Of a stretch of 64,000 nt of DNA, positions 20,747 through 47,865 are shown piece after piece. How positions within the stretch are numbered: position 1 is the stretch's first letter; the number at the start of each line of letters is the position of its first letter. The notes below the pieces were generated by a model. The model was not told the origin of the DNA and did not search any database. It worked only from the letters and a program-made list of their open reading frames with translations. Source of the DNA: Paramecium tetraurelia (taxonomy: Eukaryota; Ciliophora; Oligohymenophorea; Peniculida; Parameciidae); the NCBI RefSeq assembly GCF_000165425.1, contig NW_001799055.1, forward strand, positions 499,804-563,803, in the 5' to 3' direction. The position numbers were made by a program, and so were the translations under genes.

Positions 20747-23431
20747 ATGAATACAAATAGAACAGATAATGGTTTATTGCAGGACTGTTATTTTGGCCCT
20801 TGTGTTTTGGTTGATTCTACTAATGTGAACAATTATAAAAAAAATTCACCTTCTAGGAATTCAATCTCATCAGATTTTAGTTAAAAAGATATTGAGTAGT
20901 AATCAAATAATATTTCTCGGAATGTAGAAATGTTGCCCATAACTCTGCAAGTGTTGAAGGCCAAATAAAACTTTAGATCTAAGGGGAATCCTAACCAATA
21001 ATCATAAAGCAACTTCATTAAAGGAAGCAAGAGACAATTGCTGGAACCTAAAAATTAAAAATCAGAAGGACCCTCCTTCTTAAAAACTTATATTACAAAT
21101 AGCATCATAAATAAATTTAAAAATAACCTATACTTGTCATCGTATGTCCTCCCATATTACATGAAATATATTTTGGATAATGAAAATTACCTATAGGAGT
21201 AAAAGGAAAAAACTAAACTAAATTCAAACAAACAAGAGAGAAGGTATTGAAATTATATTTTAAGTCAGTAAAGAAAATGGCCAAACAAACAAAATGTTGA
21301 AATTAAGTCATTTACTTATGCCTGGGAAAAATCTAACAATTTTATGGGATTTCATATCCTTATTTGTTCTGTTTCTTAGACTATTTTTTTGCACCATGAT
21401 TGCATCCTTTGGATAATCGGATAATTTTTTTAAAGGCTGTGAACTTTTCTTTAATATATATATACTATTTGAGACTTTATTGACAATTTGTAGACCTGTA
21501 ATTCTCTAAGGAGAAATTGTAAGTGAGCTTGAATAAATTTGGATTCTCTATTTGAAACATTAAATGTTAGAAGATTTATCCAGTTTTGTTATTTGGTTTA
21601 TGATTTATTTTGGTTTAAATTAAGTGATAGTTCTTAATGAAATTTTTGCCATTACACAATTTGTCATAACTGTTAGATAAATAGCAAGAAAATATAATAT
21701 TCAAATCGAATAATTGTATTTAAAAGGATTTAATAGTGATTTTCTAGATTTGATTAGTCTGTTTATCATTATATGTTTTTTTGCTCACACAATGGCTTGT
21801 TTATGGTATTATATAGGCCATATCACTTTGAATCAAGGTTCTTGGTTAACATACTATGAAACAACCAATGAAAATATTTGGGCTAAATATAACCTCTCTT
21901 ACTATTGGGCGACTATGACCATGGTTACTGTTGGATATGGAGATATTACACCTAAAAATCAGGTAGAGGTTGCATTCGTATCCATAGTGATGATATCATC
22001 CAGTTGTATGTTTGCTTACTCAATGAACTCTATAGGAGTGATAGTGAAAACTATTTATGATGAAAAAACAAGATTTAAGTATTCATTTATTGAAACTTCC
22101 CTAGGAGAACGTTAATTTTGATGAATCAATTCATGTCTAAAAACGAAGTAGATTCTTAAATCCAAAGCAGAGTGAAGAACTATATTAAATTTAGTATTGA
22201 AAATGAAGTCTTAGAAAACAAAGAGGAAACTACTAAAATAATAAATGATTTACCAGTTGGTTTAAGAAAAGAATTAGAATCGGACATTTAATAGAAAGTT
22301 ATTTAAAAAATAAAGGTGATAACAGATTATTTTTCAATACAAACTTAAAATAAAGTTAAAAACAATTTATGTCTAGTCAAATTCACTCCTAAAGATATAA
22401 TATACCACAGAGATGATATGAAAGATAAAAATTTGTATATATTCAAATAGTTATGTAGATATTTCATTTCTGAAGGGGAAGTCTAAATCTTCGAAGAGCA
22501 AAGTCAAAAGGTGATCAGGAGATTAAAAGCTGGGGATGTTTTCGGAGAATTTTAATTTTTTACAGGGCAGACTCCTAAAGAATCTACAATAAGTGTAGGA
22601 TTTACATAATTATATAGGATAGATAGGGAGAAATTTATAAATATCATAAAACAAACGCAAAAAGATTATGAAAAATTTCATAAAATCAAAGATTCTATTT
22701 TATATTCTAAAAATTATACCAGCATTCTATCTAAATGTTATATATGCAATAAATATACACATAGAGATATAGAATGCCCTTATTTAACATATTAACCTTC
22801 TAAATATCTAAAGATTTTGAAATTTAACAAGTCTGAACATAACGAAAGACAAAAATACACCAGAAACAATAGAAAAAAGAGCAAAGCATAACTTGATCAA
22901 TAATAGATTGAAGCAACTATACGAGACTATTAAGAATTCTTAACAGAATCAATGTTAAATGACCTCAATGATCAAGTGTTAACATATTAAGTATCAGACA
23001 CTATTAGTGGTCAAATTGAAACAATTCCTATAGATGAATTCAGATAGAAATCTTCAAATTCTATTAATAAGAATATTCAGCAAACTGGTTTAAATAGAAG
23101 AGAATCATAAACACCCAATCTGGACTTAGATAAGAAAAAGTCAGTTGTTTTAATTAAGTAAAAGGTATCTTTAACAGAAGAGGAAAAAAGAAAAACACAA
23201 ATTTATAGGGAAACTTTAATTTTTAAATAGTTAGACCAATTCTAAGTGAAATAACAGTTCTATATGTTGGAAGGCATGGATAAAATGCAGAATTATATAG
23301 ATTATTTACCACATAATAATGCTAATATAGTTATCAGAAATGCAAACAAAGAAAAGCCAAGGACTAAATCTATTAAGCCTTAGGTCTTTAAATTTTCGAA
23401 TAATAGTTTTAGAATTGCTAAAAATATATGA
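20747..23431 (+). CDS. Cyclic-nucleotide-gated (CNBD) K+ channel with CCHC zinc knuckle
   Basis: About 886 aa. A long polar N-terminus is followed by six hydrophobic segments (about 21,320-22,060). The pore contains the intact K+ filter TVGYGD (21927-21944). A C-linker and a cyclic-nucleotide-binding fold follow, with GDVFGEF at its core (near 22,535). Directly after it lies C-x2-C-x4-H-x4-C (22736-22777), the exact spacing of a zinc knuckle. The C-terminus is basic and disordered. Intron 21244-21268 (25 nt, CAG end). One missing T in the TTTT run near 22117 breaks the frame between pore and C-linker; restoring one base gives a length divisible by three. It should sit in the plasma or ciliary membrane. 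A paralogue lies at 44.9-47.9 kb. Confidence 0.92.
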
Positions 23432-42772: not shown

Positions 42773-42820
42773 ATATTTTTGAAAAAACAAATTAAATAAA
42801 ATCTTTTTTATTTTTTTATC

Positions 42821-43272
42821 ATGGGTGTTGGTAAACCTAGAGGTATGAGAGCTGGAAGAAAGCTCAAAGATCACAGAAGAGTTAACAGATGGGCTGATAA
42901 GGAATACAATAAGGCTATGATTGGATCAAGATATAAAAATCCATTTATGGGTGCATCACATGCTAAGGGATTGGTTGTTGAAAAAATCGGAGTGTAATTA
43001 TCATATTCTATAATCTTAGTGAATCCAAACAGCCAAACTCTGCTGTCAGAAAGTGCGTTAGAGTGTTGCTCAAGAAAAATGGTAAAAAAATATCAGCCTT
43101 CGTTCCAAAGGATGGTTGCTTGAACTTTTTAAATGAAAACGACGAAGTCACAGTAGCTGGATTCGGAAGAAAAGGACATGCAGTCGGTGATATTCCAGGG
43201 GTCAGATTCAAGATTATTGCTGTTAAAGGAAAATCATTGCTTGCTTTGTGGTTGGGCAAGGTTGAAAAATGA
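42821..43272 (+). CDS. RPS23: Ribosomal protein uS12 (RPS23), small cytosolic subunit
   Basis: 141 aa in two exons around a 26-nt intron (42994-43019). The N-terminus [15 protein letters not shown], the [13 protein letters not shown] segment and the [11 protein letters not shown] loop are hallmarks of eukaryotic uS12, and the length matches the usual 142-143. The protein sits at the decoding centre of the 40S subunit; the loop containing PNSA carries the proline hydroxylated in other eukaryotes. Its intact splicing and frame make it a useful quality control for the window. Confidence 0.98.
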
Positions 43273-44938: not shown

Positions 44939-47865
44939 ATGACTCCTCCCAGTAGCTTGCGTGAAATTAGTTGTTCATTTAGAGGGAATCTAAATCGATA
45001 TGTAACAATATAAAGTAGGAGAAATAAATAAGAGCAATAAGAAGATTAATAACACTCAAGATAATACAGAATGCATTTGCAAAGAATGTATCAGGAGACT
45101 TTTATTAAACAATTGCTCGATAAAACTAAGCCAACAAGCAAAATGAACAATTATTAAAAGTAAGTTCTTGATGACCTGTAATTTGGATAGGATACATAAA
45201 TAGATGATATAGATAGTAGTTGTTATAAATTTATGTTCAACTATTTCAACAATTATCCTATTATATAACCGTAAAGCAATTTAAAAATTTGTTCAGATAT
45301 TATTTTCATTATAAACACATTGATAATCTTAATATGGTTGCCATTAAAATATTCATTCGAACTCGATTAGATTCTATAAATATTAAACTACAATAATTAC
45401 GAAATAATTGAATACCTACTCATAGTGATGTTGGCATTCGAAATAATCCTCTAATTCAATTAGGCCTATATATTTAAGGGCAAAGTAATTAAGTAATAAG
45501 TTCTTATTGTATTAGTTAGCGCTACCATATAATATACAACTATTTGAAATAAGACATGATTAAGGACCTCATCTGTTTGGTGTCCTTGATAGTTCTTTTA
45601 TTGTAAACCTTCGAGGCTGGGGAATTGAATTTAGTCCTCTTGTGTGCTTTTGGGCTTCTTCAAGGATCAAAATTGTTGAAGGTTGTGAACAACACGCTGG
45701 AATATTATAACATTCAGTAGAACAATTTGATTCCATTGGTCATAAATGTGATTGGGGTAATTTATTTGATTCATCTTGTGTCATGCATATAGTACACTCT
45801 AATAAAGGAAGTGAACAATGCAAATTCCTTAGAGAATGTAATTTAGCAGTATGTTCAATGTTTTAATTGGGCATCAGTCTATTTGACAAGTGCAGGATTT
45901 TCGAATATAGAGTCGAATAATAATGAGCAACTGATATTCTCATCAGTGATATCGATAGTTTCTATATTGATTGATGGATTTATATCTATAAAAATAGGTT
46001 TGTTTTTGTATAATCATTCTCAAAGGATCAAGCATAATTAATACATCAATATGATGACTAATTTCATGAATTTAAATAGCATAAATTTGAATCTCCAACA
46101 CAGAATTCGTAGTTATTTGTAATACATTTATAAAGTAATATAAAAGAATAATAATATAGTAAGAACAGTAGATGAATGATGAAGATATTACTCAGATAAT
46201 GGTGAAGTTGTCACACTAGCTGAGAAGTGAGTTGAAACACTAATTATAAGCCAACATTTTGGAGCAATGCAAAATGATATCCTAAAATTTCTCTTTGAAG
46301 TTGAGGAAACAGTTAGTGTATTATATGGAGGAATTGAAGACAGTGCCTGAACAACGAATCTTAACTTTGAATGAATAAGATGATAGTTCAATATATTTTA
46401 TCAATAAGGGTGAAGTCAATGTGATATTCGAATAAACAAACAATATGAATGAGAAATATCCCCGTAATCATATAAAGACTTTGCAAAAAGGAGAGTACTT
46501 TGGATTCTTGGGGTTTATAACTGGGAGTGTAAGGACAGCCACAATAATAAGTAAAGGATTCTGTTAATTGTACAAAATCTAACGAAATCATTTTGTAAAT
46601 TTGCTTGAACAATTTCCGGATGACAAAGAGAAGTTCTATATGATAAAAGATAAAGTTTAATTTCAACAGGACCTGTCTATGATTGATGCGAGATGCTATA
46701 GTTGCAAATCCACCAGTCATTTGGTGAATCAATGTCCATTCCTACATTTTGAACCTGATAAGGATAGAGTGGTCAAATAGCAATTGTATCCAATCTAGTA
46801 GGAAAGAGAGGAGATGTAATGAAATTAGAATTAAAATAGATAACGGAAATCCAAGTACATTAACGCCTTGTTACAGCAAGCAGTAATTCAAGATTTGGCT
46901 AAAGAATTGATGAAAGATTTGGAGCACGTTGAAGAAAGTGAAAACATATCAGAAAGTTAATCTTAAGACATTCAGACAAGAACCATAAAAAGTATTATTA
47001 TTTAGTTATTTAATTAATAGGTACTTCGAATGTCCAAACCAGAAGTCTCAGCAAATCTTTTAGCCAATATAGCAATCAGTTGAGTAAGTTTAGTCATAGA
47101 CCTTCTTAAACATTGACAGTCGCATAAAGTCAAAACTACCAGTCCTTGATGTCCCAAGAGGAAATAGGGAAGTTCGAGTAAGAACTGATAAAGAAGATGC
47201 CATTGCATAGAAGGTCTCAGTAAAAGGAAACAGCAGGTTTCGGTGCCAGATTTGAATCGTAGATGCATAATCCAATCTAAGACCATGATGAGGATATACC
47301 GAACATTGACATGATGGATGATGAAGTTTAAGTGTTCCAATAGGAGAGTCATAAGCCTTCTCAATAATTGTATTATTCAGACAAGAGTCCAAGAATTCAT
47401 AGAAGAATCTAATAGAAGGTTAAATTTGATCAAAATTTACTTGGGATAAAGAACAGGAGATCAAGCTTAATCTACGAGAATTATATTTAACAATTGTATG
47501 AGGAAGAACACTATCAAATAGAATTCGTAAGATTGCTTTCATTACCAACCATAGCCCATCCTAACTTAGCCCTCTGTGGGAGACTTTGATAAGATCTGTG
47601 AGTTCAGAGAGTATTATCCAGAATATAACATCTCCAGAGTTATGAGGTTTCTGCATAGAGTGACCTAGACGTATCGTAGACAACCGACAAATTCCTTATA
47701 TTCATTTTTATTCATTGCCATCCAGAAGGGACATGCCATGAAGGACAAATTGCATCATTTCCACAGCAGAAGCAATATCAAACCAAGCAATAATAGAAGG
47801 ATATATAAGTATTTGATATTCAAATATTAATTAGGAAGGGCAAAATCAAAACGGTTATATTTTGA
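44939..47865 (+). CDS. CNBD channel paralogue with degenerate K+ filter and zinc knuckle
   Basis: About 931 aa. Six hydrophobic segments (about 45,290-46,020), a cyclic-nucleotide-binding fold (46,320-46,620; KGEYFGFLGF core) and a C-x2-C-x4-H-x4-C zinc knuckle (46694-46735) match the K+ channel at 20.7 kb in order. The pore helix aligns (NWASVYLTS) but the GYGD filter is replaced by AGFSN (45886-45906), so K+ selectivity is doubtful. Introns: 46135-46159, 46816-46839, 46992-47020, 47527-47554 and 47809-47834 (24-29 nt). The second is a multiple of three and contains an in-frame TGA. One base appears missing near 45,535. The long C-terminus is Ser/Gln-rich. It may be a regulatory or non-K+ subunit. 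Confidence 0.85.

What the first reader, a model, noticed from the sequence alone, without database searches (positions are those of the whole stretch)
22736..22777. CCHC zinc knuckle directly after the CNBD in two K+ channel paralogues
Both channel genes have C-x2-C-x4-H-x4-C about 30-40 residues after the cyclic-nucleotide-binding fold (22736-22777 and 46694-46735), embedded in otherwise divergent sequence (CYICNKYTHRDIEC and CYSCKSTSHLVNQC). Zinc knuckles usually bind RNA or single-stranded DNA or mediate protein contacts. I know of no description of one attached to a cyclic-nucleotide-gated channel. It might couple the channel to RNA, to a partner protein, or to redox/zinc sensing.
Basis: partly seen in the sequence, partly recalled or inferred. 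Interest (0 to 1): 0.75.

Follow-up and report, generated by a model that had tools for sequence, protein, structure and literature searches.

The report
Zinc knuckle on ciliate channel tails
A large family of potassium-channel-like proteins in this ciliate carries a small zinc-finger motif just behind its cyclic-nucleotide-binding domain, and the four presumed zinc-binding residues are kept more strictly than the residues expected to bind the cyclic nucleotide.

Summary
Confirmed. Both motifs lie in frame at the stated coordinates, and they are not a chance pair. The window's genome holds at least 153 CNBD-channel places. I could read the DNA of 74; all 74 have C-x2-C-x3/4-[H/D]-x4-C behind the CNBD: 65 with x4-His, 8 with x3-His, 1 with Asp for His. 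In 36 disjoint pairs the ligand codons show 58 synonymous and 1 non-synonymous difference, against 73 and 148 in the rest of the knuckle. A Tetrahymena protein sequence in the PDB has the same CNBD-knuckle order. The two residues expected to contact cyclic nucleotide (positions recalled) are both present in only 21 of 53 aligned members. Window paralogue B keeps the knuckle although its pore reads TSAGFSN, not TVGYGD. RNA binding looks less likely: Gly precedes His in 6 of 72 and mean net charge is near zero. Zinc binding is untested, 79 places are unread (19 have a PF00098 match), and AlphaFold2 gave low confidence to the tail behind the knuckle in A. My searches of open papers found no description.

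The parts
22736..22777 (+). CCHC knuckle of paralogue A, CYICNKYTHRDIEC
   Evidence: ligand conservation
46694..46735 (+). CCHC knuckle of paralogue B, CYSCKSTSHLVNQC
22460..22654 (+). CNBD of paralogue A as matched by PF00027 (P0001 residues 123-187); the full fold starts further upstream
   Evidence: E 4.6e-12; Foldseek to CNG, SthK and HCN C-termini
46352..46612 (+). CNBD of paralogue B as matched by PF00027 (P0002 residues 88-174)
   Evidence: E 7.4e-12
22778..22849 (+). Conserved stretch behind knuckle A (family consensus CP-x-[LIV]-x-[YF]-x-P-[DN] ... R)
   Evidence: low AlphaFold2 confidence here in A (blocks 65, 59, 59)
46736..46807 (+). Same conserved stretch behind knuckle B
   Evidence: AlphaFold2 blocks 77-73 with a helix at residues 224-232
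21927..21944 (+). Selectivity filter TVGYGD of paralogue A
45886..45906 (+). Filter position of paralogue B, TSAGFSN (no GYG)
22435..22458 (+). Inferred 24-base intron (GTA...TAG, length divisible by three, no in-frame stop) inside CNBD A; taking it out restores the family sequence LYFI..GE
   Evidence: insertion against the other rows; no transcript data

Best explanation
The motif is a Zn2+-binding CCHC knuckle that is a fixed part of a ciliate family of CNBD channels. It closes the C-terminal end of the cytosolic domain: about 10 residues behind the last helix of the CNBD the chain is clipped into a compact zinc-held turn, followed by a conserved stretch (C-P-x-[LIV]-x-[YF]-x-P-[DN]). I propose that this cap serves protein contacts, either between the subunits of the tetramer or with a partner that places the channel, and that this is why it is kept even where cyclic-nucleotide contacts or the K+ filter have been lost. 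Shown: pattern, position, conservation, selection on the ligand codons, presence in a Tetrahymena sequence. Inferred: zinc binding (from the ligand pattern). Proposed: the protein-contact role.
For: 74 of 74 readable places carry it. In A1 the only invariant columns are G126, C213, C216, H221, C226; rows of A1 were picked with the pattern, so one search is the fairer count. Ligand codons: 58 synonymous, 1 non-synonymous; rest of knuckle 73 and 148 (Fisher 5e-22). Eight members of one clade (support 0.991) have one residue fewer before His and keep all ligands. Tetrahymena 7w5z_C sequence aligns over profile positions 4-275 of 280, E 3.1e-67, with CYNCKKIGHISSSC at the knuckle. Both expected cNMP contacts present in 21 of 53, neither in 20. 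Knuckle kept in L031 and L032 whose filters read TSAGFSN and TSSGLSN. AlphaFold2 confidence over the knuckle: blocks 94 and 88 in A, 88 and 81 in B. Near-neutral knuckle, Gly before His 6 of 72.
Against: No metal, contact or function was measured. The stretch behind the knuckle, which I take as part of the contact module, was predicted with low confidence in A. The loop residues of the knuckle are variable (2.7-3.8 bits), so a conserved binding face on the knuckle itself is not evident. PF00098 scores B below its cut-off and does not list A. 79 of 153 places were not read; 19 of these have a PF00098 place. One member has Asp in place of His (L074).
Confidence: 0.5

Rival explanations
1. Internal clip only: the zinc holds the end of the last CNBD helix and shapes how it moves on ligand binding, with no contact outside the subunit.
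For: Constant position about 10 residues behind the helix; high predicted confidence continuous with the CNBD.
Against: Kept in members that lack one or both expected cNMP contacts (32 of 53); conserved residues continue beyond the knuckle.
Confidence: 0.25
2. Nucleic-acid binding: the channel tail binds RNA or single-stranded DNA as many CCHC knuckles do.
For: CCHC spacing; aromatic residue after the first Cys in 51 of 72; Tetrahymena and a few members have Gly before His.
Against: Gly before His 6 of 72, Gly after the second Cys 6 of 72, mean net charge -0.08; single knuckle; a basic stretch further downstream was seen (positions +29 to +35) and could help, so not excluded.
Confidence: 0.1
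3. Redox or zinc sensor: oxidation or zinc release changes gating.
For: Three thiolates in a cytosolic tail near the gating ring; general chemistry only.
Against: No call bears on it; ligand invariance fits a structural site as well.
Confidence: 0.1
4. Chance or relic: Cys and His in a variable tail without metal.
For: One member with Asp for His (L074); Pfam scores mostly weak (12 of 53 members listed at E up to 1).
Against: 74 of 74 places, codon test, presence in Tetrahymena.
Confidence: 0.03

Closest known systems
CNG, HCN and SthK channels (C-linker plus CNBD)
   Same: CNBD sequence and predicted fold; channel pore upstream: TVGYGD-like in 61 of 72
   Different: The profile of the family aligns to these chains only up to about position 182-200, before the knuckle; animal CNGA channels carry a coiled coil behind the CNBD instead (recalled; the entry title 7rhl names a CLZ coiled coil)
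Retroviral-type zinc knuckle, Pfam PF00098
   Same: C-x2-C-x4-H-x4-C spacing in 65 of 74; some family members score over the Pfam cut-off (17 of the 38 best places lie in channel clusters)
   Different: A is not listed and B is below cut-off; few Gly, near-neutral; attached to a channel
Tetrahymena 'Cyclic nucleotide-binding domain protein', sequence of PDB 7w5z chain C
   Same: CNBD, knuckle and some of the tail align
   Different: Canonical Gly-His; 29-31% identical at best to the Paramecium-type rows. The entry is a complex IV structure (passages) and was not among the 50 rows shown by Foldseek, so I do not know whether this region was modelled or the label fits the chain
Kv T1 domain zinc site (recalled, no call)
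   Same: Zinc in a cytosolic channel domain, at subunit interfaces
   Different: Other domain, other ligand pattern, N-terminal

Membership tests
zf-CCHC zinc knuckle | C-x2-C-x4-H-x4-C | tested here: met
   Both window copies; 65 of 74 places, 8 more with x3
zf-CCHC zinc knuckle | Score over the Pfam cut-off | tested here: not met
   A not listed, B 12.7 bits against 20.8; some paralogues pass
zf-CCHC zinc knuckle | Binds Zn2+ | not testable with these tools
   Needs metal analysis
zf-CCHC zinc knuckle, nucleic-acid-binding type | Gly before His, basic surface (recalled) | tested here: not met
   6 of 72; mean net charge -0.08
CNBD cation channels | CNBD homologous to PF00027 | tested here: met
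   A 46.2 and B 45.5 bits against 27.5; 53 of 53 members
CNBD cation channels | Pore with K+ filter upstream | tested here: inconclusive
   A met; B TSAGFSN. Family: 61 of 72 TVGYGD-like, 3 other (one of these SVGYGD), 8 none found in the 500-1500 bases upstream, where an intron could hide it
CNBD cation channels | Glu and Arg of the phosphate-binding cassette (positions recalled) | tested here: not met
   A has Glu, not Arg; B has Arg, not Glu; both in 21 of 53, neither in 20
CNBD cation channels | Gated by cyclic nucleotide | not testable with these tools
   Needs electrophysiology

The most novel reading that the evidence does not exclude
Ciliates have turned the CNBD of a very large channel family from a ligand sensor into an assembly and placement domain whose key element is a zinc-held C-terminal cap; combinations of paralogues, including pore-degenerate ones, are sorted by this cap.
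Probability: 0.25. Interest if true: 0.8.

Novelty: new variant of a known kind. Interest (0 to 1): 0.6.

Why it matters
It would add a zinc module to the short list of elements known behind the CNBD of ion channels, in a family of at least 153 places in one genome, and it gives a sharp test (four residues) of what these channels need when the cyclic-nucleotide contacts are gone. Pfam lists the knuckle in only 12 of 53 members at E up to 1, which may be why it was overlooked.

Tried and rejected
Rejected: chance pair; knuckle as a general partner of CNBDs in this genome (of 135 PF00027 places that I copied out of 150, 102 lie outside the channel clusters, and none of the 74 PF00098 places lies within 1200 bases behind these 102; PF00098 misses many true knuckles, so this is weak). 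Two rows, L033 and L068, were dropped by a filter on the downstream sequence; both have the pattern. One fetched cluster has a second pattern match upstream, taken as chance. A1 holds 53 of the 74 places (open frame long enough and pattern present). The tree has no outgroup and was rooted at the midpoint; Tetrahymena fell among the paralogues, support for that place was not printed. Papers: search listings (13 showed 20 of 53, 33 showed 20 of 206, the others all they found); passages only of PMC10227065, PMC10060162, PMC7576140, PMC6564038, PMC3556005, PMC8964087. PMC1557398 is not held. The library lacks most subscription journals, and older Paramecium K+ channel papers that I recall were not seen.

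Full report
The window uses the ciliate code (table 6) and belongs to a genome held as G000, 69 Mb in 231 contigs. The genetic code, tiny introns and genome size suggest a Paramecium of the aurelia kind; this is inference, no tool names the organism.

Observation. The two motifs are in frame at the stated places. Each begins 28 residues after the end of the Pfam CNBD match. Channel A has a TVGYGD filter upstream; channel B has TSAGFSN.

Family. P0001 (C-terminal frame of A) matches 95 places of the genome and P0002 (B) 150; the searches score only the best candidates, so these are lower bounds. They merge into 153 clusters. The readable ones are those closest to A or B plus one block of 20 taken in contig order, so they lean towards near relatives. 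All 74 have the pattern: 65 C-x2-C-x4-H-x4-C, 8 C-x2-C-x3-H-x4-C, 1 with Asp for His (L074). Of the 79 unread, 19 have a PF00098 place; for the other 60 there is no direct evidence on the ligands.

Conservation. In 72 distinct segments the three Cys columns have zero entropy and His 0.11 bits, while the other knuckle positions have 2.25 to 3.74 bits. The pattern was used to pick segments, so the fair statement is the 74 of 74 above. In a 53-row alignment the five invariant columns are one Gly of the CNBD and the four ligands; the median column has 2.64 bits. In 36 disjoint closest pairs the ligand codons differ synonymously 58 times and non-synonymously once; other knuckle codons 73 and 148, the 20 residues upstream 167 and 270, the 12 downstream 144 and 124. 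DNA identity therefore does not explain the retention. The eight members with the shorter loop form one clade with support 0.991 and keep every ligand.

Outside this genome. The sequence of PDB 7w5z chain C, 1471 residues, named a cyclic-nucleotide-binding-domain protein, aligns through CNBD and knuckle (CYNCKKIGHISSSC) with E 3.1e-67 to the family profile. Passages of PMC10227065 call 7W5Z the Tetrahymena complex IV dimer. The chain was not among the 50 rows shown by Foldseek. I therefore use it as a Tetrahymena sequence only. Other profile hits shown, to CNG, HCN, SthK and kinases, end before the knuckle.

A blind scan with PF00098 gave 74 places in the genome; 30 lie in the channel clusters, 17 of them among the 38 best, against about 0.1 expected. 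So the channel family is a main carrier of CCHC-like matches here, though the very best places are outside it.

Mechanism. The positions expected to contact cyclic nucleotide (Glu and Arg of the phosphate-binding cassette, recalled) are both kept in 21 of 53 members, one only in 12, neither in 20; A lacks Arg, B lacks Glu. The filter is TVGYGD-like in 61 of 72, other in 3 (L031, L032, and L064 with SVGYGD), and not found in 8. The knuckle is kept throughout. The conserved function of the tail is therefore not tied to ligand contact or K+ selectivity, which favours assembly, placement or partner contact. AlphaFold2 is confident over the knuckle (94 and 88 in A; 88 and 81 in B); against a folded contact module, the stretch behind it is weak in A (65, 59, 59) and moderate in B (77, 73).

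RNA. Gly before His 6 of 72, Gly after the second Cys 6 of 72, mean net charge -0.08, aromatic after the first Cys 51 of 72. The region 29 to 35 residues downstream is rich in Lys and Arg, which could bind nucleic acid, lipid or protein. RNA binding is disfavoured, not excluded.

Known or new. No paper in the listings describes a knuckle on a CNBD channel; the count of 'zinc knuckle' was 0 in all 20 rows listed. PMC7576140, a survey of CNBD channels of eukaryotes, has no occurrence of 'zinc' in its main text. Automatic databases may list the domain pair; I did not search them.

Noticed in passing
window 45886-45906: Pore of channel B reads TSAGFSN where A has TVGYGD; its closest relative L032 reads TSSGLSN. 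Possibly a non-K+ or silent subunit.
   Followed up: partly
window 22435-22458: Inferred 24-base intron whose length is divisible by three and which holds no in-frame stop, so it reads through unnoticed in the frame.
   Followed up: partly
L017, L018, L019, L021, L022, L024, L025, L026: A clade with one residue fewer between the second Cys and His of the knuckle.
   Followed up: yes
L074: Single member with Asp in place of the His ligand; its look-alikes L069 and L076 keep His.
   Followed up: no
window about 42818-43272, + strand: Frames that look like ribosomal protein S23 (S12 family), split by an intron; named by eye from the translations, no search made.
   Followed up: no
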